In this document: one piece after another, positions 28,055 through 56,032 of the stretch
How the letters are laid out: each line of letters starts with the position of its first letter
How positions within the stretch are numbered: the stretch's first letter is position 1
From: Dacryopinax spathularia
Lineage: Eukaryota > Basidiomycota > Dacrymycetes > Dacrymycetales > Dacrymycetaceae
Length of the DNA: 64,000 nt
Reading direction: 5' to 3'
NCBI GenBank assembly: GCA_037974965.1
Contig: JBBPFI010000011.1
Location: 930,001 to 994,000, forward strand
The notes under the pieces: generated by a model
Told to the model about the DNA's origin: nothing
Databases searched by the model: none
The model's input: the letters and a program-made list of their open reading frames with translations, nothing else
Translations under genes and position numbers: made by a program

Positions 28055-28905
28055 ACCCCCGTCCAGTGTCTGGAAAGGCTTCTTGCAAGTCGCTGGACTT
28101 GCACGCAAGCCTTTCGTAGACTGCGGGGATGCTTCTTATCTGTGCAAAATCGTCCTTGTATGGTCTTGGTCCCATCTGCTTTCGCGATATCAATAACGAT
28201 AGCCATTCCATCATCGCAGGCAGATCCCGCGAGAAAAGTCCACTCTCACCCCCGCTCGCACGATCGTCGGTATAGTAAGCATTCAGCCTGTGCACCCAAC
28301 GATGTCGAACGGATCAGACACAAGCGGGAAATGTGCCTGCATCATACCGGTGCGCGGAAGCAACCTCCAATATCTCACTTCCAAATATAGTGCCCGTTGT
28401 TGCACGACCCTGAAACGCGCATCATCGGTTGTGGCTCAGCTCTCACCCACACAATCTCATGCATTTACTTACTTTATTTCAATTCATACTTTTCCAGGCT
28501 TCACAGCATAGATCGACCTTCTGGCCGGTCTGTCTGCCTACGAGAGAATGTGACAAAGCGATACCCTGACTCTCGGCTCGTGAAACGTTGTAAGAAGGAC
28601 ACTGGCGGGTGGGCCAGTCATCATAGACCCGGCGGTCTTCCTGGCGGTGCAACCGAAGGTCGAAACATGCTGCAAACTCCGCTGCCGATGTCGGCACTTT
28701 GGAGATAGGTGAGGGATATTAAAGGTGCGCATTATACCATCTCGGGTTCCTCATCCCTCTCGCTCAACTCGCTCAGGTGCAGGTCGCCTGAACTCCTCTG
28801 GTCGCACCCCCCTCTCGCATCACATCTACTTGGTGCAGGTCACCACTACCAACACACTCGCTCAACTACCTCTCTCCCCTTGCCCATTTACCAGACGATA
28901 TTAAC
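28055..28905. other. Intergenic region and K1 promoter
   Basis: About 850 bases. The last 150 bases contain a leader element shared with K3 (see 28780-28799) and a CT-rich stretch typical of fungal transcription starts. No gene is seen in the rest. Confidence 0.45.
28780..28799 (+). promoter_or_regulatory. Element shared by K1 and K3 upstream regions
   Basis: CAGGTCGCCTGAACTCCTCT ends 106 bases before the K1 ATG. The identical 20-mer lies on the minus strand at 32531-32550, ending 117 bases before the K3 ATG. K2 has a partial relative (GTGCAGGTTCACC, near 30555) and K4 a degenerate one near 35025. It may be a promoter or 5'-UTR element, or simply retained homology from duplication. Confidence 0.45.
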
Positions 28906-29838
28906 ATGCGTACTTCAACTGCAGTTTTGCTCACCGCTGCCCTTGCGGCTTCGTCCACTTTCGCTGCTCCTCTGTCGAGGCGAGCTGAGGAAAGCTCACT
29001 CGCTGCACGCGGTGGGTTCGGCCACGTCGTTGAAGCCCTGGCCAAGCACATCGAGGAGCACAAGGAGGCCTACAAAGTCCTCGGCAATGCTGCGCATAGC
29101 GTCATGCAGAGCGTGAGCGGGCGATCTATCGAGGACGATGATGTCATCGTGCTCTCCGAGCGGGACATCGAAGATCTTCTGGAACTGGACGAGCGCGAGC
29201 TGAACGACGTCCTGGAGGGGTTGGACGAGCGAAGCCTGTTCAGCATTGTGGAGCGTATCGGAGCCAAGATCTTGCACCACGGGGCGCACCACGCTGCTTC
29301 CAACGCCGGGAACAACAATAACAACAACCAGCACCGCCGGTCTCTTGAGGATGACGATGAGGATCTCACAGAGCGGGACCTCGACGATATAGATGAGCTG
29401 GACGAGCGCGAGCTGGACGATGACTTTGACGACCTGGATGAGCGCAACTTCTTGACCGGCATCATCGGAAAGCTGGTCAAGCATGGTGCCAAGCATGGGG
29501 CTGAGAATGCTGCCAACAACGCTGCAAACAACCAGCAGCAGCAGCAGCCACCGAACCAGCAGCGGTCGCTGGAGGACATCGACGACGAGGTCGACTTCAC
29601 CTCCAGGTCCGTCCCTGTCGACGAGCTCGAATTTGACATGGACTTCACCGCCCGTTCCGTCCCAGTCGAGGAGCTCGAGTTCGAGTCTCCTGACGCGCGC
29701 GACGTCGACGGTGCGGAAGTCGAGATGCGCGACCTTGTCGACGGCGAGGCGGAGCTCGAGGGCCGCAATGGGTTCACCAAGTTCCTCGGTAAGATCGGGA
29801 AAACCATCAAGAAGGGTCTCGGCTTCATCGGCCTCTAA
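28906..29838 (+). CDS. K1: secreted precursor with acidic spacers and cationic amphipathic segments
   Basis: Single exon, 310 aa. Residues 1-20 form a signal peptide ending AAP, then RR at 25-26. Residues 34-73 form a family block (ARGGFGHVVEALAKHIEEH..). Strongly acidic spacers repeat LDERELND/LDERELDD-like units and SLEDxDDE. Between them lie three glycine-containing helices with basic charge: residues 109-132 (SLFSIVERIGAKILHHGAHH), 181-201 (NFLTGIIGKLVKHGAKHGAE) and 288-310 (NGFTKFLGKIGKTIKKGL, then GFIGL). Asn/Gln runs follow the first two. The layout is that of a polypeptide precursor cut after Arg to release peptides, with acidic parts neutralising them. Cleavage sites are mainly single Arg, with HRR and SRR as better Kex2 candidates. 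Function is inferred, not shown. Confidence 0.72.
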   Translation: MRTSTAVLLTAALAASSTFAAPLSRRAEESSLAARGGFGHVVEALAKHIEEHKEAYKVLGNAAHSVMQSVSGRSIEDDDVIVLSERDIEDLLELDERELNDVLEGLDERSLFSIVERIGAKILHHGAHHAASNAGNNNNNNQHRRSLEDDDEDLTERDLDDIDELDERELDDDFDDLDERNFLTGIIGKLVKHGAKHGAENAANNAANNQQQQQPPNQQRSLEDIDDEVDFTSRSVPVDELEFDMDFTARSVPVEELEFESPDARDVDGAEVEMRDLVDGEAELEGRNGFTKFLGKIGKTIKKGLGFIGL

Positions 29839-30623
29839 GGAACGTGCCGCGCCCTTTCACTCTTCGCGATTCTGTAGCGCTACAACCGGCCCGTCATGTA
29901 TGTTGTACTGTAGACTGGAGATCATGCACGTCCGTGTACTACTCGGTGTACGTTCTGGTGTGAAGTTTAGTCCGCCTGCGCGTGGTCCCTTCCGCTGATT
30001 GTACTTGTAAAGCGTTTCACCATGGCCGTCGAACAACCGTGCGCATTGACGGTATAGATCATGCGCAAGAGTGAGTCACTACGGCTGGACATCAGCAGCT
30101 CACGGCATGACTCTGAAACGCGCCTGGGCCCATCGGAGGTTCAGCTGTTGATCGGAACAAATCTGATGCACTGCTTCATTTCGCCCACTAATAATCCCTC
30201 TCTCCCACGCTCATAAGCGAGAACAGCTTCTGATGGCCCTGAGCCTGTGATTATAGGTACGTGTGTGCCTTGTAGGACTTTCTCTCTCTCGCTGCGGAAA
30301 AAGCGATACCATGACCCTCCTAGCACCTGGGTCCGAAACAGCGCAGCTGGAGGTTCTGCAAGCTATCGATCGGCTCTCAGTCTGGCGATGCAACCGTGCC
30401 GAAACGTTCTTCAACTCTACTGCGTATGCCTGTGCAATGGAATGAATGAATGGATATTTAAGCTGAAGGATTGCCTTGGCTGGTTCGACATCGATCCCAT
30501 TCAATCGGTGCTGGTCACCCGATCTCTCCCCCTCCCCGATCCTTCAATCCAGCAGGTGCAGGTTCACCAACATAGACTTATTCTATCACTCCCACACCTT
30601 CCTTATTCCAAAGATACGCAATC
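29839..30623. other. Intergenic region between K1 and K2
   Basis: About 785 bases. It holds the K1 3' region and the K2 promoter, with GTGCAGGTTCACC about 60 bases before the K2 ATG. No other gene is seen. Confidence 0.45.
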
Positions 30624-31625
30624 ATGCGCTTTTCTACCACTGCAGTCGTCAGCCTCGCCGTCACCGCAGCTTCCATCCTCGCTGCACCTGTATTCAGTAC
30701 CGAAGACCCCGTACTTGACACACGCGGAGGATTCGGCAAAGCCGTCGAAGGAGCCGCCAAGCACGTCGAAAAACACCACCATGCCTACAAGGCACTCGGA
30801 AAAGCTGCAAACGGCGCATATCAAGCTCTCAATGCACGATCGGGATATAAGTTTCGGACACCTCTCTATCGAGACGAGGACGGGCTCCCTATCGATAGCG
30901 AACAAACTTTCGATGCACGATCCGGATACAAGTCTCGCACTCCTGTCTATCGCAATGAGGAGGGGCTCAGCTCGAGCTCGCTCATAGACAGGAATTGGGG
31001 CGAGGGGGACATGGACTGGCTGGACCGACGCGAGTTGGACGTAGATGACGAGGCTTTCCTGAACGGCAGGGGAAAGCACGAACTAGACTTCCACAGGATC
31101 TACCATAAACGTGAGGTTCAGGACGTCGTCGGGAGTCTTGACAAGCGGAACTTGGCAGACAACACCGTCATTGTGATGGCACGCGAGCTTGATCTGGGAG
31201 ACGAGGTCAGCCTGGATGCAAGGGGCAAGCACGAATTGGACTTCAGCAAAATCTACCATAAGCGCGATGTCGAGGACAGATTGGCGGAACTTGGCGAGCG
31301 AGACTTGTTGGATGAGGCTGGTGCTCTTGTAGTGCGGGAGACGGAATTCATCGCCAGGTCAGATCTTGATGATCCCCTGGAGCTCGAACCCCTCGGCGCT
31401 CGGGAAATCAACCAGGATGCGAATGCCCAACTGGAGCTGCGCGCCATCTCCAACGACGAGCAGCGATTGGAAGCGCGACAGCGCACCGCGTATCCCCGCG
31501 TCCGGCTCGGGAAGGCGCTCAATTTCGGCACGAAGCTTGCAAAGTACAAGGCGAAGCAGGCCTTCCGCAAGGCGGGTAGCATGGTCAAGGCGGTTATACC
31601 GCACCGTCGTGAATCCGACTCATAG
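30624..31625 (+). CDS. K2: secreted precursor with Kex2-flanked tandem peptides
   Basis: Single exon, 333 aa. Signal peptide to about residue 21. Family block at residues 34-72 (RGGFGKAVEGAAKHVEKHHH.. then ALGKAANGAYQALNAR). Two internal repeat pairs follow: ARSGYKFRTPLYRDEDGL (about 71-88) with ARSGYKSRTPVYRNEEGL (about 98-115), and RGKHELDFHRIYHKR (149-163) with RGKHELDFSKIYHKR (200-214). The second pair is bounded by Arg and the dibasic Lys-Arg that Kex2 cuts, followed by Glu/Asp-Val. DKR at about 173-175 is another site. The C-terminus (RVRLGKALNFGTKLAKYKAK, then QAFRKAGSMVKAVI) is strongly basic and amphipathic. This is the layout of fungal Kex2-processed repeat proteins. The released peptides have no relative that I recognise. 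Confidence 0.72.
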   Translation: MRFSTTAVVSLAVTAASILAAPVFSTEDPVLDTRGGFGKAVEGAAKHVEKHHHAYKALGKAANGAYQALNARSGYKFRTPLYRDEDGLPIDSEQTFDARSGYKSRTPVYRNEEGLSSSSLIDRNWGEGDMDWLDRRELDVDDEAFLNGRGKHELDFHRIYHKREVQDVVGSLDKRNLADNTVIVMARELDLGDEVSLDARGKHELDFSKIYHKRDVEDRLAELGERDLLDEAGALVVRETEFIARSDLDDPLELEPLGAREINQDANAQLELRAISNDEQRLEARQRTAYPRVRLGKALNFGTKLAKYKAKQAFRKAGSMVKAVIPHRRESDS

Positions 31626-31858
31626 TCAGCTGGCTTTTGGCACGGCCGTCATGTACCCGTAGTCATCACCTCAATTGAGAAGTATATGTACATTGAGCAC
31701 GTATCGAACCGCTGCCCGAGGGGAGACCAGTCGTCCGGCTCCTTACCCGGTACAAAGCGAGTCACAAAGACGAGGTCACGATCGAAAAGGTCGTACTCGC
31801 GGACCTCGCCGTAAACTCGGCTCCTCATCATTGCTCCCCTCTAGCGAGTGCCACCCTT

Positions 31859-32413
31859 CTAGTTCTGGTTGCTGTTGCTGCTCCCACCAGAGTGGCCCAC
31901 AACGCCCTTGACAACTTTCCCCACAATGCCGAACAGTCCGCGTTCGTCAAGCAGGTCTTCGTCGTCCATGTCCGACCTCGCACCAAAGTCCCACTCATCA
32001 TCGACGTCGTCCAGCGAGCGTTGCTTCTTATTCTGCTGGTTCTGGTTGCTGCTGCTACCACCACCAGACCCGCCCACGACGCTCTTCACGACCTTCCCGA
32101 CGATACTGAACAGCCCGCGCTCTCCCAATCCAGCAAGGAATTCAGCGCCGAGCTCGCGTTCGGCGATAACCTCATCGTCTTCGTCGTCGGAGATAGAGCG
32201 GCCGTTGTTGACGGCTTGATAGACGCCATTGGCGGCCTTGCCAATGGTCTTGTACGAGCTCGCATGTTTCTCGAGGTGGTTCGCTACAGAGTCGACGATT
32301 TTGCCGACCGTGCCGCGTGCGGTGAGTGAGAGGCGCTCTTCACTAGGGAGCGGTGCGGCGAGGGCCGAGGAAGCCCCGAGGGCGAGGACGAGAAGAGCGG
32401 TAAAGAAACGCAT
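31859..32413 (-). CDS. K3: secreted precursor with two near-identical GLF peptides
   Basis: Single exon, 184 aa, start chosen at MRFFTALLVLALGASSALAA because it gives a clean signal peptide like its paralogs; an in-frame ATG at 32506 would bury it. Family block at about residues 33-72 (RGTVGKIVDSVANHLEKH.. IGKAANGVYQAVNNGR). Acidic spacers (SDDEDDEVIAER, SLDDVDDEWDFGARSDMDDE) separate two copies of a hydrophobic-basic segment: GLFSIVGKVVKSVVGGSGGG (from residue 100) and GLFGIVGKVVKGVVGHSGGS (from 159), each preceded by ER and followed by Ser/Asn/Gln tails. K1 and K2 are on the opposite strand. Likely secreted and processed; peptide activity unknown. Confidence 0.72.
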   Translation of the reverse strand: MRFFTALLVLALGASSALAAPLPSEERLSLTARGTVGKIVDSVANHLEKHASSYKTIGKAANGVYQAVNNGRSISDDEDDEVIAERELGAEFLAGLGERGLFSIVGKVVKSVVGGSGGGSSSNQNQQNKKQRSLDDVDDEWDFGARSDMDDEDLLDERGLFGIVGKVVKGVVGHSGGSSNSNQN

Positions 32414-33152
32414 GTTTATGTACAGGTGTTGGTTCGGATTGGGTCGTAGATAGACAAAGGAGACAAAGGAATAAAGAGTGAGGACGAGATGTGAGGTGAC
32501 CGGCACCGGGTAGGGCTGGGATATGCGAGCAGAGGAGTTCAGGCGACCTGCGCCAGAGCGATGGATCTACGAATACACAGAGCCAGAGCAGTCAAGCAAG
32601 CACCTTTAATACCCGCATCCATTACGAGACCCATCAACCTTCAATGATCGGCCAAGCTACACCGTGGTCGATGCTGCAAGAGAAGCAAGACGGTTTGGAG
32701 GATGCACGGTGACGGTTCGCCGAGTGTTTCACGGCCAGGAAGCGCCGAGAGGTTGGAAACTGGATTGTAGCCTTTTGCCAGTCCAGACATCAGATCATCA
32801 GCGCTCAGTTTTCTCGTGATGTATCACTGAGAAAGTAGAAGGAGATAGATCAATGCAACTAGGTCTGGAGAGTTTGATCAAGAAGAGTTGAGCAGACCAG
32901 TTGACTGTAGCGTGAGAAGCAGTGCTCGGGGTTAAGCAGCAACTGAATGACCATATCACCGACGACAGATTCGGCTGTATTGTGACACCGCATGAAAAGA
33001 CGTAAATGCCAAGTGGCTTCTTAACAGCCCCGCCGAAAAATGGAAAAATAGAAAGTTCTCATCTACGCAGATCCCCGACCTTTGCGAAGGAAAGAAAACA
33101 GGAATGTGCCGCAAAATGTCGGGAAACCGAGGGTTCACGACGTCGTGGGCGA
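32414..33152. other. Intergenic region, duplicated at 34930-35628
   Basis: Holds the K3 upstream region and the 3' flank of copy C. Most of it recurs in diverged form at about 34975-35600; for example the stretch at 32950-33070 matches 35440-35545 closely. No gene is seen. Confidence 0.5.
32531..32550 (-). promoter_or_regulatory. Element shared by K1 and K3 upstream regions
   Basis: Minus-strand copy of the 20-mer described at 28780-28799, in the same relative place upstream of K3. Confidence 0.45.
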
Positions 33153-34353
33153 CTAGGCAGTTACGGCCTTCATTGTCTATATAATCAAGTGTTAAGAGAA
33201 ATATTCACACAGCGACCGGCTGCTGGCGTACCACAACAACAGGGTCGTATCCTTGGTTCGTAGCCGCTTGTAAGTTTGCCTGGGTAGATGCCTGAATGAT
33301 TGTTGGTGGCGTTAAGCTATTCCCGCGCAACCAAAACACCAACGGCTCGTTCTCTATGGGGAGGATCAGGACTATCCGAAACCATGCAGCCAGGACGGGG
33401 AGCGCACCGGGATCAATGTTGTGTGGGCCGTTATCCCATACCGCCGTGACAGTGCCATCAGCGCCAGTGTAGTACTACAGCACATCAGCGTTTCGTATGC
33501 TTTCGAGCTATAAAAGGGCCGGGCTTACAATATCCGTTTCGTAGAATGCAGATCCAAGACCTGGGAAACTTCCAGCGCCGGGCTCTCCGTTCGGTCCGGC
33601 TGAAGAGATCAGTATAGACCCTTGAATGGATGGAGAGCGAGAGGACATACTTGATGAAATGCTTTCAAGTGCGACCGTCAAAATGGGGCTGGGAGGCTCG
33701 ATAAAGGCTCTTGTTGATACCTGCCAGGCGAGACTCACTTGTTGGTGTATGTGCCTTGATCAGCCGTACCGGAGATGGCTGTCAGGTACCGACCCTGCGA
33801 AACACAAGCGTCGACGCGGTCAGCACGTAGCAGTACCTGTCCAGCATCGTGGGGAGTCACGTACGGAGGAACCATAAACCGGAAATGCGCCGGGAGTGGA
33901 GGAGCCCGCAGGTTGGGTAGGTGTGAAGTAGAGTGATGTCTCGTATACTGGCACGCAATTGGTAAAAGCACCAGGAGCCAGGGCTCCGACATAGCAGATG
34001 GGAGTCGGTTCGCCCGGCGTGTACAGCGCTAACTTGACGGGGGGATTGGGTAGCCTAAGCGAACTATCACTACCAGGGTTCTGCTATCGAGAGGAATGTG
34101 TCCTACGAGGATCGGCGAGCGAGCGACGCTCCTGGACAAAGGCGTGCGGTCTGTTAATGCTGTGACCGCGACGGGCGAAGGAGACGGGCGTACCTGTACT
34201 GCTGGCGTTGAACAGTCTTTCTGGCCGTAAGGGAGGCAGGCCTCGCGCGAGGCGATCCCCATTCGTAGCCCTTGATGGACGTGCAAAGGCAGCAAAGGGA
34301 ACACAGAGAGATCCGAGGAAGACAGAAAGGCAGAGAAGTCCCAGCACCATCAC
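33153..34353 (-). CDS. Secreted protein copy C of the RGLPPLRP family
   Basis: Signal peptide (MVLGLLCLSVFLGSLCVPFAAF), then RLARGLPPLRPERLFNAS. Micro-exon encodes GASLARRSS. Exon 3 holds LPNPPVKLALYTPGEPTPICYVG, split below 20 residues as LALYTPGEPTPICYVG, with a C-terminal exon containing PPTTI-like sequence and GYDPVVV. The last 24-nt exon (33176-33153) encodes TMKAVTA after an acceptor at ATATAG. Sister of copy D by segmental duplication; the two share the FNASSTG variant instead of YNATRTG. About 250 aa, secreted, function unknown. Middle exon boundaries are less certain. Confidence 0.66.
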
Positions 34354-34759
34354 GCAGACGGATAGGTCGAAAGGCCGCAGCGAGGTCGAAGACGTGGTTC
34401 AGGAGGCTGCTGCTACCTGATTGCGTGCAGACTTGCCAGTGGGGGGCGAGCAGGCCGTCTGACCATATAAAAGCCTTTGCATGGAAACGTTACATAATTG
34501 CTGTCACAAAGTCCGCCCTGTCCGAGAAGGTCGGACTCGCGCCAAGCAAATGCAATGGTCTACGGCAAACACGGCAACGTAACACTTTTCAATAGTCAGG
34601 GTGCTTGGATGAAAAAAGAAATCGGCACGATATCGCCGAGCCATCGATCGCTCTATGGCCTATCGCCGAACGTTTCTATCGCCGATGCACGGCCTACGAT
34701 CCAAAACTTTCACTCCTCTGCGCCCTCGCAAAGAACGCGGCATATGGTCCAGCATTGCA

Positions 34760-34930
34760 AACTGCTCCAATGTAACATGTTTCTCAGGTGGCCCGCCACT
34801 GAGTCCACGATTTGGCCAACCTTGCCGCGTGCAGCGAGGGGGAGCTGGTCATCAACAGGTAGGGCGCCGCGCTGGCGGAGGCAGTGGCGACTGCGATGAT
34901 GAAAACAGCGGGCTGGGTATGTACAGGTGT
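34760..34930 (-). pseudogene. K4: truncated relative of K3
   Basis: On the minus strand the stretch CACCTGTACATA that precedes the K3 ATG is kept, but the start codon position reads differently. Fragments in shifting frames correspond to the K3 signal peptide, then LPLAARGKVGQIVDSVAGHL against LSLTARGTVGKIVDSVANHL. Similarity ends near 34780, which is where the segmental duplication unit begins, so the copy lacks everything after about codon 46 of K3. It was probably truncated at birth by the duplication breakpoint and has decayed since. No product is expected. Confidence 0.68.
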
Positions 34931-37260
34931 CATGGTGGTTATAGCTAGACCTGCCATTTTGTGAAGACTGTGTGAAAGGGACTTGGCTAACCGGCACCAA
35001 CGAGGGTTGGGATATGCGAGCCGAGGCTTTCCAGGCGACCAGCAGCGGAGGGGGTTGATTGACGAAGACACAGACTCAGAGCAGTCAAGCAAGCGACTTT
35101 GAAACAGGGTGGCATGACCAAGGTCCACTCGAGTGCAGATATTGGCGAAGCTCCACCAGGTTTGATGCAAAAAGAAGAGCTACAGGTCGGACGATACACG
35201 GTGCCCGTTCGCCGAGAGTGGTTGAGTCACGGCCAGGAAGCCCGGAGAGGTTAAAGCAGGCATAGAGCAGTCCGCAAGTCATAACACCGTATCCTCAGAA
35301 ATCAGCATCCCTATGTTTGCGCAATGATCGAGTCGAAAATATGGGTGCATCCAGGTTTGCAGACCAGCAATAGAAATTGAGCGAGACGAGGTGACTGTAG
35401 GAAGAGAAAGCGTTGATCGGGGTTAAGCAGCAGAAACCATATCACCGACAGCGTCAGCTGGATTGTGACACCGCATGAAAAGACGTAAATGCCAAGTAGC
35501 TCCTAAACAGCTGCGCAGAAAAATGGAAAAATACCAGTTCCCATCTATGCATATATCCGACATTTGACAAGGAAAGAAACCAGGAATGCGTCGTATACCG
35601 CTGGGAGGATTTGTCTCCTCGTGGGCGGCTAGGCATTCACCGCCTTCATACTCTATACGATCAACTGTTCAGAGAAACATTCACACAATGACAGGCGCGG
35701 ACGTACCACAACCACAGGGTCGTATCCCATGTTTGCAGCCGCTTCTAAGTTTCCTTGGGCAGAAGCCTGAATAGTTGTTGGTGGCGTTAAGCTATTCCCG
35801 TTTAACCAAAACACCAAGGGCGCATAGCTCTCTGCGTGGAGGTTCAGCACTATCTGAAGCTATACGGCCAGGACGGGGAGTTCACCGGGATCAACATTGT
35901 AGTTGTAGTGCCCATTAAACCATACCGCCGTGACGGTGCCGTCAGCGCCGGTGTAATACTACACACGTCAGCGTTCAGCATGCTTTCGAGCGAGGACGCG
36001 GTCGGGCAGGCGTACAATATCCGTCTCGTACCATGCGACTCCAAAAGGTTGGAAGTATCTGTAGCCCGGATCTCCGTTCACTCCGGCTGAGAATATTAGT
36101 ATAGTCTTGAATTGAACAAAAGCGAGATGGCATACTCGGTGGATTGCTTCCAAGTGCGATCGTCAAAACGGGGCTGGAAGGTTCGATAAGACACTTATGC
36201 TACGTCGCCTGTGATACAGCGCGGGACTCACTTGTAGGTGTCGGGGCCTTGATCAGAGTCTTCAGAAAGGGCTGTCAGGTACTGACCCTGCCGAACACAA
36301 GCATCGAAGCGGTCAGCACGTGAACATTACCCGACCGGCGTCGTGGAGAGCTCACGTACGGGGCTACCATATACAACAAATTCTCCAGGTGTGGAAGAGC
36401 CAGCCGGTTGCGTAGGCGTGAAGTATAGTGACCCTTCGTCCAACGGTACGCAATTGGCAAAAGAACCAGAAGCGACGCTTCCGACATAGCAGATGGGAGT
36501 TGTCTCGCCCGGTGCGTACAGCGCTAGTTTGAAGGGCGCAGTGGGTAGTCTAAGCCAGCTATCAGGAAAGGGTCTTGGATTCGAGAGGAACGTCTCCCCA
36601 CGAGGATCGGCGAGCCAACGACGGTCCTGGGCGAAGACGAATAGTCCGTTAATGAAGACATTGTGACGGGAGGCAGACAAGAACATACCTGTACTGCTGG
36701 CATTGAACAGCCTTTCGGGCCGTAAAGGAGGCAGACCACGCGCGAGCCGGTCCCCATTCGTAGCCTTTGATGGACGCGCAAAGGCAGCAAGGGGCAGAGA
36801 GACCAAAGATCCGAGGAAGACAGAGAGGTAGAGAAGTCCCAGTTTCATTGTATCGACTGTGTAACTCAGAAGGATGTCGTCGTCGTCGAGAACACGGATC
36901 TGGTAGTAGGCAGACGCTACCTGGTCCCACTCAGACTTGCCAAAGGGCGGCGAACGAGTCAGGCCGTCTGTCCATGCCGCTGAATATAAAGTCTTTCCGT
37001 AGAAAAGTTACATAATGCCCCTCAAAAGTCCGCCGTGTCCGAGAAGGTCGGACTCGTGCCGAACAAGTGCCAAGCAAATGCAATGGTCTGCGGCGAAGTA
37101 ACAGTCAGGGTCCTTTCAATGCACTTCAATTGTTACAGTATCGCCGACCGATCACTTTCCTTATCACCGAACTCCCGCTCGCCATCGCCGACATGCCTAT
37201 CGCCGACGCATTCCTCATTGTCCAAAACTTCCTGACCTCTTCGCTCTCTCAGCGAGACAG
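34780..37260. repeat. Tandem segmental duplication, unit 2
   Basis: Diverged second copy of 32270-34745, containing K4, copy D and the promoter side of the histidine methyltransferase gene. Head-to-tail arrangement with unit 1 indicates tandem duplication. The many differences and small gaps suggest it is not recent. Confidence 0.72.
35629..36848 (-). CDS. Secreted protein copy D of the RGLPPLRP family
   Basis: Signal peptide (LGLLYLSVFLGSLVSLPLAAF), then RLARGLPPLRPERLFNAS. A 25-nt micro-exon encodes GPSLARRS. The next exon encodes LPTAPFKLALYAPGETTPIC, YVGSVASGSFANCVPLDEGS and LYFTPTQPAGSSTPGEFVVY in series. The C-terminal exons encode FWLNGNSLTPPTTIQASAQG and NMGYDPVVV, and the 24-nt last exon (35652-35629) encodes SMKAVNA. 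Closest to copy C. Its start is head-to-head with the histidine methyltransferase gene, 429 bases apart. Secreted, function unknown. Confidence 0.7.
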
Positions 37261-50018: not shown

Positions 50019-50099
50019 CTTTTTTACACAATTAGTGTATCAACGTGTGCTAAATAGAAGCCCACCCAGAATTTGGGTAACAAGAGAGATCCGCGAAGT

Positions 50100-53000
50100 C
50101 CGCGAGATCAATCATGTGGAATGGGCCTGGCCCTCCCTCGCAGCCTGCGGGTTGGGGGACGAGTGCCCAAAGAGCATTCCCGCAAGGGATGCCATCTAGA
50201 GGGTCTAGCACCCCGGGAGAAATCCCAAATGTATGGGAAAATATCCCTACTCGCTCTCATGCGAGTTCGGCTACTAGCCGGGAAGTTAATCCCAACTCGC
50301 TGACTCGAGAAGAGCCAGAAAGTGGTGAGTTCCCACTTGAGGAAGAGGTCGGGGAGCAAGACGCCCCGACGAATGCTTCCCGCATAGTGGAAGAGCTTCG
50401 AGACGAAGCTGGTTGGATCCGGCGAATTGCCGACGATTATCAACGTCTGATAGATAGAGATCCGGAAAATGCGGATCAATACGCCCAATTGGCGATACAA
50501 GTTGCCTTCCTCCATAGGGAAGATATGAGGAACCGAGCTGGCACGGCGTCTAATACGTTCGCCCCTTGCTCGAGATTCAGCTCCTCTGAACATCGTCAGA
50601 GTGTCCCACAGTTTGGGCAAAGTACGCCTGCGTTGAGGCACGCAAGACCCGATTTGGGACAAGGAGGCTATACGCCGTCCGGAATGGCACAGGCTGAATC
50701 TTCGGCCAATGTCCATGTACGAAGAGACATGGCTTCTTCAATAGCGCGTAACCGCGCAGATGCTACACATGGTAGCGTTCCTTTAATGAGGAACAAGTCC
50801 GAATTAGGGACAGGCGCACTTCTGCCCGATACTCCTCTGAAGAGGATAACCCATTGGGTTGAAGCGGCGAGTGATGATCGCCATTCGACTCATTGGTCTA
50901 ACCACCCAGGGTTGAAGGTAAAGCACCCGGATGAGCCATATGATGGCGAGTCGGATGTCGACAAGTTCGTCGAATTCATCTCAACCCTGGTGAGAATGTT
51001 CCGCAATTCAGGAACCATAGGCCCAGAATATGGTGCCTGGCAAGTTGATGCCATGAGCCAGTACTTGACTGGAGAAGCTTATCGTTGGTTTGAAGCCAAC
51101 ATAGAGCTAGGTGACCTTCCCCGAACGGATTGGACATTTGCCAAAGTGGTGTGGGGAATGTACCACCGCTTCTTCTCTTCGGAAGAAAAGCATAAAGCAT
51201 ATTCTGCTTTTGAAACCCTTAATCAGGGAAGCCTCACTGTCGAGGCATTGAAAGATAAGTTGAGCGGCATATTAGGCCGAATGCATGAGCGTCCAGGCGA
51301 CTATGCCGTGCGAAGAAAGTTTCTTCTTGCTCTTCGCGAGAGCCTTAGGACGAAAATCCTAGAGGGAGGTTATGACCTCGATGCTGATCCTTTCAGTGAT
51401 CTCTATGCGAGAGCGATAGAGATTGAACGCGGCCGAGAAATGGCTCGCGAAGTAAATGCCTATAGGGCAAAATCTATAGAAGGATCTGGGCTAAATAAGC
51501 CCGCAGGGAACAAGTTCGTCCCGAAGCATGATGGTGCGAAACCATCAGAGCGTACAGATGTACGAAAGACAGTGACCTTCGTCACTTCTTCCCATCGTCA
51601 GGGGCGTGAGCATAGCCACAAGAACCCTATTCGGGAAGCGAGGCGAAGTGCCCCTGCCAAGATCAATAATGGTCGAGCGCCTAATTTAGGCGCGGATAAG
51701 CGCCATGATAAGCGCCCAGCCACTAATAGTGGAAATGACGGAGTTGTCTGTTACATATGCAGACAGCCCGGTCATTACGCTACTAGTTGTAGCCAGCGTA
51801 AAGGAGTACGCGTAGGAGCTACTAGCTCAGGGAACGAGGATCTTGTCCTCACAGATGATGGCGTACATGCCATTCTTACAGATGGAGAAGCAAATTCTGC
51901 TTCACTCGAAACTGTCGAGTCCCCTCCTGAAGGAGCAGAATGCCATGATGATGGCTGGGAGACTGCAGATGAATCATCTGTCGACTCAGATTATGAGGAT
52001 GATCACCAGGAAATGACTGGGGCGTCTGTGCACGTCATGTCCATACAACCTGTAGGATTACAAGTTGTAAGGGCCGCTGCGGCACATCCATCTTTTACTC
52101 CAGATAAGGGAGTTAAGCCAGAAGTATGGCGACATGACGGTACTATCCGTCTGGGCAAAAATCAGCCCGTAAGAGACGTAATTACGTCCACTCCAATCGA
52201 GTGTTATATCCTCATTGATGGACGACCCGCTTGGGCACTGGTAGACAGTGGTGCTGAAATAGACACCATATCTGCCGAGTTCGTCAGAGCGCACAATCTG
52301 CGTTTCATTAAGCTGGAATCTCCAGTCGCTCTTCAGCAAATGAGTCGCGGAAGTCGCACTATAATCCAATATGGGATTAACGCTGAGATTAACGTATCGG
52401 ATCGTAAAGTCGATCATTACTTCGACATTGTCAATATGGACAAGTATCAAGTGATACTAGGTCTCCCCTTCGGAAGACGCTTTGAGATCATGATAGATCT
52501 GGCCCAGAAAGGCATCCTCATAGGAGGACGTGAAGGGAAATGGATCCCATCCGGAGAACCTCTCTCCAAGGGAATAGAAATCCCTAAGAGCCCTCAATCA
52601 GGGAAGAAAAGTTCGAGAATCTCGAAGCCCAAGATAGTAGTGGGCATGCGTGCCTCTACCAGTATGGGCGCGACTATTAATTCGCCAAGTAGGCGAAACC
52701 CCGCGATATTGGGGCTTAAGTCTTATCCCGAAGCCGATCTTCAAGAGATCAGGAATACGCTGATAGCGGAGATAAGTGATCTCACCGGGGATATTCCCCC
52801 CGTTCTCCCACCTTTAAGGAAGGTTAATCACAAGATCAATTTGATCGATGACAAGGCCATCTACAGGACTAGACGTCCTACTTGTCCCGAAGTACATCGG
52901 GAAGAGCTTCATCAGAAGACTCGGTGGTATATTACCGCGGGCTGGTGGGAGCCAGCGCAAACGCAAAACGCGCTTCCCATGCTTTGCATTACAAAGCGAA

Positions 53001-56000
53001 ACGGTAAGTTAAGAACTACCGTAGATTGTTGAGAGAGGAACTCGAACACGGTGAAAGATGTCACCCCGATGCCGGATCAAGATGAGATCCGAAGATGGGT
53101 TGCTAAACACCCTTTTAGATCCAAATTGGATCTGCAAAACGCTTTCGAGATGCTCAGGATAGAGCCAGAAGATGTGTGGAAGACTTCCTTCCAAAACCCA
53201 TTTGGGACCTACCTAAGTTTGGTAGGGCAACAGGGCGATTGTAATCTGCCCGCGTCCTTTCAGAGGATGATGATGGATATTCTCCATCCATATTGGATGA
53301 GAAAGGTAGTATGCTACCTTGACGATATTTTCGTCGTGGGGACTACTCTCGCCGAAGCGATCGACAATCTCCGAATAGTCTTTGGCGTACTTAGAGAGCA
53401 GAAGCTCTATCTGTCAGCTGACAAAGTGGACTTATTGTCCCCGAGTATCGAGTGCCTAGGGCACAAAATTACGGATGACGGCGTGTATGCCGATGATGAC
53501 AAGATGTCTGTCATTAGAAATGCGGAATTCCCGCAGGATGCGAAGTCTATGCAACGCTTCCTAGGCATGGTAACTTACCTGTCGCCGTACTTTCCGGACT
53601 TGACTAGATATTCTAGTCCTTTATCTGCGCTTACGCACATACACAACAAGTTTGTGATTACTCCCATGCACGTCTGGTGCTTCAAGAAGATTCTTGACTT
53701 GGCTACGTACTATCCTGTGCTGAAGCCAATAGACCCAAATAACGGAATTCCCGTTTTCGTCATTGTTGACGCCTCGACTTGCGGGGTAGGTTGTTATTAC
53801 GGACAAGGTCCGTCTTGGGATAAAGTACATCCCGCTGGATTTCATTCCAGGAGGTTCACAGATGCGCAGATGGCGTACCCGACCTACCAGCAGGAGCTAT
53901 TAGCTGTGTTGGAGGCGCTCACCAAGTGGCAGAGTCAGTTGATAGGAATTCCTATCACTATATGCTCTGATCATGAGCCACTGAAATATCTTCAGTCTAA
54001 AGCCAATTTGGCTGGTCCTAGAGTGACTAGAGCACAGGAATATTTACAGCGCTTTAATATAGTGAAGATTCTTCATGTACCCGGAGAGCGCAATATTGTT
54101 GCGGACTGGATGTCAAGAAGTGAGGGGTATAAAGACCCAGTCTCTGCCGATGTGCGGATAGATAAAGATATGGACACTCTATCGTCCGCTCGAATTGCCG
54201 AGCTCTTGCCTAAAGTAGCAGTCTGTCAAATGACGACCCGGTTTAAGGGGAATAAAGTACCCCTTAGGTACAAAAATGATCCGCAAATTGCGGAGGAGGA
54301 GAAGCAAACAGCTTCTCAAAATCGGAGAAATCGTTTGGAGCCAAGAGCTCGAATCAGCCAGAAGCTGAACTCCGGCGTCCCATACGCCGAGCCTGCCGTT
54401 ACCGCAGTGGAAGGATCTATTCCTCCTAATACGGCATCGGCAGACGCAGAGAATGAAACGGCAGAAATACCGCCAATGGTTGATCAAGGCCGATCTTCCG
54501 ATCCCAAATCGGGATACTTCCCAAGAGGAATGACCGCTCTGATTCGAGCGATAAAGCATGCCTATTCGGCAGATGTTTTCTACAAGAAGATTAAGGCAAT
54601 ATTGCCTGGATCCAATAGTTGGATTGAAGAGGATGATCTCCTCAAGTTGAAGCACCCGGAAGGACAACTCGTCCTTTATGTACCAGAGTGTACCTTTCAG
54701 GGGAAGCTCCTGAGGCCGAGGCTAATAGCCAATGCTCATACAAGCGTAGGACACTTTGGTCCGCGGAAAACATTGGCCTACTTGAGGCATCAGTTCTGGT
54801 GGCCGCGGATTTCACGCGAAGTACAGACATTCTGTAAGGCATGTCCTCTATGCCAAATGTCGAAAGATTCGACGACTAAGCCATTTGGCTTATTACACTC
54901 ACTGCCCATCCCGGCTGATCCGTGGAGGGCTATAGCCATGGATTTCATGGGACCATTACCCACGAGTGATGGATACGACTATCTATTGATAGTCATCTGT
55001 CGGATGTCGACTATGGTACACTTGATACCGTGCATGACTCCTTCGTCATCTGCAGATATTGCAGCGAGCTTCCTAAGGGAAGTGGTGCGTTTGCACGGCA
55101 TGCCGGAAAGCATAGTGTCCAATAGAGACTCGAAGTTCACTGCCAAATTCTGGCAAGAGTTGCACAAAAAGGCAGGGACAGCGCTTTCGATGTCCACTGC
55201 CTTCCATCCCCAAACAGATGGAATAACCGAACGTATGGTTCGGACTGTGACGCAAATTCTGCGAACGGTCGTAAATGATGACCAAACAGATTGGTGTAAT
55301 CATCTCCCCATGGTGGAGTACGCAATCAACGCGAGTACCAGTACGAGCACGGGCTTTAGCCCTTTCGAACTGGTTTACGGTCATATACCGCCCTTGACTA
55401 GAATAGTCAAACACTCAGAATCTGAGTTCCGCAGAGTAGATCGCTTCCTTCAAGCAGCGCGATATAATGTGCGCATCGCAACTGATGCGATTATTGAAGC
55501 CCGAGTTGATCAGGGCGTACATGCTAATAAGCGTAGACAGGAATCGCCTGCATTCCAGATAGGTGACAAAGTATATTTGTCTACACGGAACTTGTCCGTA
55601 CCTAAAGGGCGTGTAGCCAAGTTGATGCCCTGCTATGTGGGACCTTTTGACATCCTCAAAGTGACGGACACAGACAATTGTCTGCTAGACTTACCGCAGA
55701 GTATGCGTGATCGGAGAATTCATCCGACCTTCCATTCTAGCCTACTTAGGCCTTACGTCAAAAATGAGGAAATGATCTATCCAGATCGCGACCCCGACAC
55801 TGTGTTTGGGGATGTTCCAGATGGGGAACAGTACGTGGAGGTGATAGATGATCACCGATGGCAGCGCAATAAGCTGCAGTTCCACTTCGTCTGGTCCGAC
55901 GGAGACCAAACGTGGGAAATGGCTGATAAAGCCGATAGATTAGTCCAGTTGGACGAGTACCTTGCTCTGCAAGGAGTCCAGGATATGGACGAACTCCCAA

Positions 56001-56032
56001 AATTAGGGGGGAAGGGACGTGATGCCCAATGA
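50100..56032 (+). other. gag-pol coding part of the retrotransposon
   Basis: Gag-like region up to about 51.8 kb ends in a CCHC zinc knuckle (CYICRQPGHYATSC). A retropepsin-type motif (ALVDSGAEID) lies near 52.2 kb, reverse transcriptase about 52.8-53.6 kb with the YLDDIF active site near 53.3 kb, RNase H about 53.7-54.1 kb, and integrase about 54.6-55.5 kb with an HHCC zinc domain and DDE core. A chromodomain-like C-terminus near 55.8-55.95 kb (EVIDDHRWQRNKLQFHFVW) is typical of chromoviruses, which read histone marks when integrating. Treated as a fossil element; no product is claimed. Confidence 0.88.

What the first reader, a model, noticed from the sequence alone, without database searches (positions are those of the whole stretch)
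28906..34930. Cluster of secreted precursors alternating acidic spacers with cationic amphipathic peptides (K1-K4)
Seen: three intact single-exon genes and one remnant share a signal peptide, a block like RGGFGKAVEGAAKHVEKHH / IGKAANGVYQA, and alternating acidic (LDERELDD, SLDDVDDE) and basic glycine-helix segments, often with Asn/Gln tails. Known: acidic pro-parts neutralising basic peptides are a recurrent design in antimicrobial and venom precursors. Inference: a lineage-specific fungal peptide system, secreted and processed after Arg.
Basis: partly seen in the sequence, partly recalled or inferred. Interest (0 to 1): 0.85.

Follow-up and report, generated by a model that had tools for sequence, protein, structure and literature searches.

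The report
Fungal precursors of acid-spaced cationic peptides
This stretch of a fungal genome encodes secreted proteins that look built to be cut into positively charged helical peptides kept apart by acidic spacers, and proteins of the same design turn up in jelly fungi, mushrooms and a mould.

Summary
K1 (310 aa), K2 (333 aa) and K3 (184 aa) are intact single-exon genes; K4 is a truncated, frameshifted remnant; K2 is the weakest case. The finding is larger than described: three more precursors lie upstream on the same contig (K5-K7), one on another (K8). Proteins of the same plan occur in Calocera, Flammula, Clonostachys solani, unlabelled (probably metagenome) proteins and, with weak E-values, Candolleomyces and Agrocybe. 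Best reading: secreted Kex2-cut polyproteins that release cationic amphipathic peptides. Their signature is the extended Kex2 site Leu-x-x-Arg, not dibasic KR/RR. Over 29 proteins, 237 of 568 Arg have Leu at P4 (52.7 expected; 0 of 1000 shuffles reach it); 58 of 68 hand-picked core starts follow LxxR. The three K5 cores are nearly identical in protein but diverged at 19-30 of 34 silent sites. All six contig-11 genes carry GGTGCNGGTCRCC, a motif with 21 sites in 29.2 Mb, within 140 bp upstream on their own strand. Cleavage and membrane activity are inferred, not shown. The family fits the KEP concept as a non-dibasic variant. 'Lineage-specific' fits only the K1-K3 N-terminal block.

The parts
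28906..29838 (+). K1 precursor gene, 310 aa, single exon
   Evidence: alignable to P0001 of Calocera viscosa over its length
29011..29124 (+). K1 N-terminal block (GGFGHVVEALAKHIEEHK...SGR)
   Evidence: helix in low-confidence model
29233..29340 (+). K1 weakly basic, His-bearing segment 1 with Asn tail, preceded by LDER
29446..29565 (+). K1 basic segment 2 with Gln tail, preceded by LDER
29767..29835 (+). K1 C-terminal cationic amphipathic segment NGFTKFLGKIGKTIKKGLGFIGL, preceded by LEGR
30624..31625 (+). K2 precursor gene, 333 aa, single exon
30726..30839 (+). K2 N-terminal block
31506..31607 (+). K2 C-terminal cationic region
31859..32413 (-). K3 precursor gene, 184 aa, single exon
32018..32116 (-). 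K3 segment GLFSIVGKVVKSVVGG... with Asn/Gln tail, preceded by LGER
31862..31939 (-). K3 segment GLFGIVGKVVKGVVGH... with Asn/Gln tail, preceded by LDER
32198..32314 (-). K3 N-terminal block
34779..34930 (-). K4 remnant of a K3-like gene: gap over start codon, single-base gaps, truncated
28776..28788 (+). promoter motif GGTGCAGGTCGCC upstream of K1
28832..28844 (+). promoter motif GGTGCAGGTCACC upstream of K1
30507..30519 (+). promoter motif GGTGCTGGTCACC upstream of K2
32495..32507 (-). promoter motif GGTGCCGGTCACC upstream of K3

Best explanation
K1-K3, with K5-K8 elsewhere in the genome, are secreted polyprotein precursors of the KEP type. After the signal peptide is removed, the Golgi protease Kex2 cuts after Leu-x-x-Arg, and a Kex1-type carboxypeptidase probably trims the Arg. 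This frees cationic amphipathic helical peptides without cysteine, such as the SKIGxKIKNFFKKVGG and GLFxIVGKVVK types, from acidic spacers that neutralise them while they pass through the secretory pathway. The freed peptides most likely act on membranes of competitors or other neighbours (antimicrobial or cytolytic). Shown here: gene structure, site enrichment, charge segregation, purifying selection on repeated units, a shared promoter motif, and a kexin gene in the genome. Inferred: cleavage, trimming, neutralisation, membrane activity.
For: Leu at P4 of Arg: 42 of 137 in own K1-K3 and K5-K8 (11.2 expected), 18 of 41 in three Calocera proteins, 39 of 82 in four Agaricales, 34 of 47 in Clonostachys, 104 of 261 in 14 unlabelled proteins; 0 of 2000 shuffles reached any of these. 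LxxR outnumbers KR/RR in 29 of 29 proteins. Of 68 core starts picked by eye (all after Arg by choice), 58 follow LxxR. Cut sites fall on charge boundaries: 14 of 29 proteins in the top 5% of circular shifts, median rank 0.063. The three K5 cores differ at 19-30 of 34 silent sites and 1-4 of 92 replacement sites; the two K7 cores at 7 of 21 and 1 of 75. A kexin gene with S8 and P domains is present. Kex2 prefers LXXR and tolerates Glu at P2 (papers). Peptides apparently ending at single Arg were seen when mushroom KEPs were expressed in Pichia. In five relatives (P0005, P0010, P0016, P0019, P0020) 20 LxxR sites are followed by x-Pro, the STE13 trimming motif of KEPs; own proteins show it at 0 of 42. 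Promoter motif: 7 of 21 genome sites lie upstream of the six contig-11 genes.
Against: No peptide, transcript or activity data. The hydrophobic moment is not above shuffles (p over 0.05) in 7 of 20 listed peptides, among them both K3 cores (0.22, 0.29), the K2 C-terminus and K5 core 2. K1 inner segments carry only +1 and +2. Charge patterning is weak in K2 (z 1.8), K6 (1.7) and P0009 (1.2), and absent in P0021 (-2.0) and P0023 (-0.1). In K1 against P0001 the acidic spacers are conserved about as well as or better than the basic segments (25 of 36, 17 of 35 and 30 of 67 against 19 of 36, 16 of 40 and 9 of 23), and the acidic 14-mers of K7 also differ mostly at silent sites (dN/dS 0.06-0.26 where defined), so the spacers may have a function too. 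Asp at P3, common here (LDER), is reported as unfavourable for Kex2. The shared promoter could reflect shared descent only. E-values of such biased sequences may be too good.
Confidence: 0.6

Rival explanations
1. Surface-active structural peptides, like the Rep1 repellents of Ustilago: the freed amphipathic, Asn/Gln-tailed peptides self-assemble on hyphae and make them water-repellent.
For: Asn/Gln tails in K1, K3 and K5. Rep1 peptides are Kex2 products that form amyloid-like fibrils (papers). The acidic spacers could hold assembly in check.
Against: The SKIG-type cores of K6, K7 and K8 carry +6 to +8 and no Asn/Gln tail. Homology to Rep1 was not searched for directly.
Confidence: 0.15
2. Signalling peptides: conserved cores act on a receptor of the same or a partner organism.
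For: The SKIGxxIKNFFKKVG core is kept, with small changes, between own, Calocera, Flammula and unlabelled proteins, more specifically than amphipathicity needs. Some relatives have the x-Pro (STE13-like) dipeptide after the site, as in alpha-pheromone precursors. Other KEP products are pheromones (papers).
Against: Cores differ greatly between precursors of one genome, and x-Pro follows 0 of 42 LxxR sites in the own proteins.
Confidence: 0.13
3. The proteins are not cut: they work whole as disordered polyampholytes, for example in the wall.
For: Acidic spacers are conserved in K1/P0001. No processing data exist.
Against: Leu at P4 of Arg is enriched more than fourfold, and cuts fall on charge boundaries.
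Confidence: 0.1

Closest known systems
KEX2-processed repeat proteins (KEPs; PMC6339444, PMC7329392, PMC9769878)
   Same: Signal peptide, several peptide units between kexin sites; some relatives also have the STE13-like x-Pro after the site
   Different: Sites are mostly single-Arg LxxR rather than KR/RR/KK, units are long cationic helices, and acidic spacers alternate with them. One method of the Coprinopsis survey cut at dibasic residues only, and another survey names KR, RR or KK as the sites, so they may have missed such proteins; their tables were not checked.
Candida Ece1/candidalysin (PMC5784256, abstract and outline seen)
   Same: Kex2 then Kex1 release a membrane-damaging peptide from a larger precursor
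   Different: One discrete toxin within a 271-aa protein. No sequence comparison was made.
Spider linear-peptide precursors with PQM/iPQM (PMC9788040, passages seen)
   Same: Linkers rich in acidic residues alternate with cationic helices, cut after xxxR with Glu nearby; works alike in plan
   Different: Fungal, with Leu at P4 as the stronger signal; resemblance of plan only, no homology tested
Ustilago Rep1 repellents (described in PMC9769878 and PMC8528282)
   Same: Kex2 products, surface-active
   Different: Not compared by sequence; the SKIG-type cores are strongly basic and untailed
K2PP effectors with LxxR pro-domain sites (PMC8528282, first of three parts read)
   Same: Extended Kex2 motif LxxR
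   Different: There a single N-terminal pro-domain is removed; here many sites cut a polyprotein

Membership tests
KEP | N-terminal signal peptide | tested here: met
   Hydrophobic N-terminus in K1-K3 and K5-K7, followed by A-A-P or a similar site; by hydrophobicity only, no SignalP run
KEP | Repeated peptide units | tested here: met
   K5 three, K7 two, K3 two copies; Clonostachys P0008 seven cationic units. K2 has only short repeats; K6 and K8 show no clear repeat of the core
KEP | Dibasic KEX2 sites between units | tested here: not met
   K/R at P2 in 15 of 137 Arg of the own proteins, 19.0 expected; K3, K7 and P0008 have no KR/RR; 6 of 68 core starts follow KR/RR
KEP | Extended Kex2 sites (LxxR) between units | tested here: met
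   237 of 568 Arg with Leu at P4, 52.7 expected
Dikaritin RiPP | UstYa (PF11807) gene next to the precursor | tested here: not met
   Five matches, on contigs 6 and 2, none on contig 11 (counts are lower bounds)
Spider PQM precursors | Glu at -2, -3 or -4 before the cut Arg | tested here: met
   227 of 568, 186.6 expected, 0 of 1000 shuffles; 47 of 68 core starts; a modest excess and a likeness of plan, not of descent
Spider PQM precursors | Glu within three residues after Arg (iPQM) | tested here: inconclusive
   204 of 568, 184.5 expected, 36 of 1000 shuffles
Spider PQM precursors | Homology of the peptides | not tested
   No spider sequences were compared
Candidalysin/Ece1 | Sequence homology to Ece1 | not tested
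   Sequence not fetched
Rep1 repellents | Peptides form surface amyloid | not testable with these tools
   Needs peptides

The most novel reading that the evidence does not exclude
A widespread, unrecognised superfamily of fungal peptide precursors, present in Dacrymycetes, Agaricales and Hypocreales, uses LxxR kexin sites and alternating acidic spacers to make arsenals of linear membrane-active peptides. It would be a fungal counterpart, reached independently, of spider linear-peptide precursors. Dibasic-site genome surveys would tend to overlook it.
Probability: 0.45. Interest if true: 0.8.

Novelty: new variant of a known kind. Interest (0 to 1): 0.63.

Why it matters
To my knowledge (recalled, not searched as such) few linear, cysteine-free, membrane-active peptides are known from basidiomycetes. 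A family recognised by LxxR plus charge alternation gives a simple rule for finding many more, suggests that dibasic-only searches undercount kexin-made peptides, and offers ready test molecules. It also bears on how a fungus stores self-harmful peptides safely.

Tried and rejected
Pfam gave no informative domain. K5 passed cut-offs for AIM3 and Yae1_N with no single stretch passing on its own, which I read as repeat artefacts; other matches to precursor proteins were below cut-off. PDB sequence searches gave one weak polyketide-protein match at E 0.48; for the K7 core three chains whose names I take, from recall, for designed coiled coils (E 8.5e-9, 2.6e-5 and 0.69), matched through their repetitive Lys pattern; and nothing for a K3 core. 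AlphaFold on K1 (4 sequences) and P0020 (5 sequences) gave mean pLDDT 38.4 and 38.2; helices fall on basic segments and on some acidic ones, without confidence, so no fold search was run. The random-cut control was badly matched in fragment length (no protein below p 0.05, lowest 0.147) and was replaced by circular shifts. The 14 other genome sites of the promoter motif had no precursor-like frame within the stretch looked at; five lie in one repeated sequence and two in another. The search with Clonostachys P0008 found nothing at E 0.1 in the own genome. The search with K3 alone found no homologue; the K1-K3 profile found one. Weak own-genome matches at C16:403888 (E 0.054), C12:527353 (0.16) and C9:306123 (2.88) were not followed.

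Dropped rows: P0011 (frame apparently lost in the model) was left out of pooled counts. One search failed part-way and was faulty for K1-K3 (empty sequences); one search replaces it.
Full report
What is there. The window lies on contig 11 of a 29.2 Mb, 24-contig genome without a name, fungal by its genes (inference). K1, K2 and K3 are intact frames of 310, 333 and 184 codons with no cysteine. Cutting on paper after Arg gives a hydrophobic leader, a block of about 38 residues, and then acidic pieces (mostly net -2 to -7) between basic, Gly-rich pieces, in K1 and K3 with Asn/Gln tails. K2 is the odd one: short basic repeats and a strongly basic C-terminal region. Charge segregation against shuffles is z 5.2 (K1), 4.2 (K3) and 1.8 (K2). 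K4 is a broken partial copy of K3, at the edge of a tandem duplication of about 2.49 kb that also copied the neighbouring gene.

The family is larger than the window. K1 as query found a fourth gene just outside the window, and further searches found more. K5 (contig 11, 927281-928333, 350 aa) has three near-identical units after LDER. K6 (925227-925868, 213 aa) and K7 (911241-912059, 272 aa) carry SKIGDxIKNFFKKVGG cores after LQER or LQAR. K8 (contig 15, about 537560-538062, one predicted 56-base intron, 148 aa) carries nearly the same core. A simple filter (Cys at most 1, LxxR at least 3, 12% acidic, hydrophobic start) picked six of 107 ORFs from the window and three fetched stretches, exactly K1-K3 and K5-K7; the filter was set after seeing them.

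Relatives elsewhere. K3 alone found none. The K1-K3 profile found one, a Calocera viscosa hypothetical protein (P0001), alignable to K1 over its length: 152 of 310 K1 residues identical. A profile of K6-K8 and P0001 found 23 proteins at E up to 1, P0001 among them: three of Calocera cornea (1.9e-36 to 7.9e-5), Clonostachys solani (5.3e-7), Flammula alnicola (two, 2.1e-4 and 9.3e-3), Candolleomyces eurysporus (0.028), Agrocybe pediades (0.10), and 14 without an organism name (sources jgi, lgn, ena; presumably metagenomes; 3.8e-32 to 0.21). Only 7996 candidates were scored in each profile search. The weak hits are kept because they show the same plan when read. A profile of P0020 and four unlabelled proteins matches the K6-K8/P0001 profile at 97.4% probability, and Clonostachys P0008 at 98.5%; biased composition may inflate both, so common descent of all branches is likely, not proven. 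K8 and P0002 of C. cornea agree at 122 of 148 positions, so the host is probably a dacrymycete (inference). The K1-K3 N-terminal block was seen only here and in Calocera.

The site. Pooled over 29 proteins (all but P0011), 237 of 568 Arg have Leu at P4 (52.7 expected) and 387 have L/I/V/A/P (180.8 expected); no shuffle of 1000 reached either. K or R at P2 is below expectation in all five groups tested, whereas Glu at P2 is raised in all five. LxxR outnumbers KR/RR in 29 of 29. I listed 68 starts of basic segments by eye, all after Arg by choice; 58 have Leu at P4, 65 one of L/I/V/A/P, and 6 KR/RR, one of them counted in both. Circular shifting of the cut pattern shows that cuts coincide with charge boundaries: 14 of 29 proteins in the top 5% (K1 0.042, K2 0.010, K3 0.233), median rank 0.063. 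After LxxR, x-Pro follows at 29 of 237 sites: 0 of 42 own, 0 of 18 Calocera, 4 of 39 Agaricales, 0 of 34 Clonostachys, 25 of 104 unlabelled, and 20 of the 29 in P0005, P0010, P0016, P0019 and P0020. Published work gives Kex2 a strong preference for LXXR and a P2 choice that includes Glu, with Asp at P3 unfavourable (PMC8528282, first of three parts read; PMC6258133, passages). In a mushroom KEP study several products seemed to end at single Arg, and x-Pro/x-Ala after the site is the STE13 motif (PMC9769878, abstract, passages and discussion). The own genome has one locus found with a P-domain, joined to a subtilase domain.

Selection and regulation. The three K5 cores (42 residues each) differ at 19, 24 and 30 of about 34 silent sites but at 1, 4 and 3 of about 92 replacement sites; the K7 cores at 7 of 21 and 1 of 75; the K3 cores at 8.5 of 14 and 4.5 of 37. 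The acidic 14-mers of K7 are also constrained (dN/dS 0.06-0.26 where defined), so constraint is not confined to the basic parts. Between K6 and K7 the core is tighter than the pro-part (pN/pS 0.11 against 0.56); against K8 the core is looser (0.33, 0.44). The motif GGTGCNGGTCRCC, drawn by eye from several of the upstream regions, has 21 sites in the genome (reversed pattern 12). Seven lie 60-140 bases upstream of K1 (two), K2, K3, K5, K6 and K7, always on the gene's strand. Of the 14 others, five are in one repeated sequence and two in another, and none precedes a precursor-like frame in the stretch examined. Shared control or shared promoter descent both fit.

Peptide properties. The maximal 18-residue hydrophobic moment exceeds shuffles (p 0.035 or less) in 13 of 20 listed peptides, strongest in P0012, K8, P0001, P0020, K6 core 1, K7 and the K1 C-terminus (0.67-0.81). 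It does not in the two K3 cores, K2 pepA, the K2 C-terminus, K5 core 2, K6 core 2 and the P0010 core. The 20 were chosen by eye.

How it most likely works. Secreted precursor; Kex2 cuts after LxxR; the terminal Arg is trimmed; cationic helices are freed from acidic spacers; the helices disturb membranes of competitors. Only the sequence-level statements are shown. A result against putting all weight on the basic parts is that K1/P0001 acidic spacers are as conserved as the cores. In K7 against the unlabelled protein P0003, by contrast, cores (19 of 32 each) are better kept than the pro-part (29 of 141).

What is known. KEPs are the nearest named class (PMC6339444 and PMC7329392, passages; PMC9769878). 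These proteins share its logic but not its dibasic sites. UstYa tailoring genes of dikaritins were found on contigs 6 and 2, not on contig 11. Spider linear-peptide precursors work alike in plan (PMC9788040, passages). In the listings of nine library searches I saw no paper describing this family; the library lacks most subscription papers, and the KEP supplementary tables were not read, so it may be listed there.

Noticed in passing
window about 32290-34569 and 34779-37097: Tandem duplication with offset about 2.49 kb, 72-94% alike in pieces, containing a neighbouring gene (second copy frame 36330-37007, -) without Pfam match; it explains K4.
   Followed up: partly
window 50081-56029: Ty3-like retroelement: gag/protease frame and reverse transcriptase/integrase frame.
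   Followed up: no
L037:2057-2105: Just after the K7 stop codon the same frame continues with a decayed further SKIG-like unit, read by eye.
   Followed up: no
G000 contig 6, 1456385-1473948: Four UstYa-family matches within 18 kb, a possible dikaritin-type cluster.
   Followed up: no
P0018 and P0021 (unlabelled proteins): The SKIGNFFKKVGG core sits near the C-terminus of proteins with quite different repeats (VSKIPVHEGGEF-like in P0021), so the core may have moved between precursors.
   Followed up: no
P0005, P0010, P0016, P0019, P0020: Basic units begin with Asp/Glu/Ser-Pro right after LxxR, the dipeptide pattern that STE13 trims in KEPs; the window's own proteins lack it.
   Followed up: partly
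P0011 (Calocera cornea CALCODRAFT_21434): K1-like N-terminus, then the sequence changes character after LDERGAS and gains cysteines, as if the model leaves the frame.
   Followed up: no
G000 sites listed, loci L041, L044, L045, L047, L052: The promoter motif also occurs inside a repeated sequence present at five places.
   Followed up: partly
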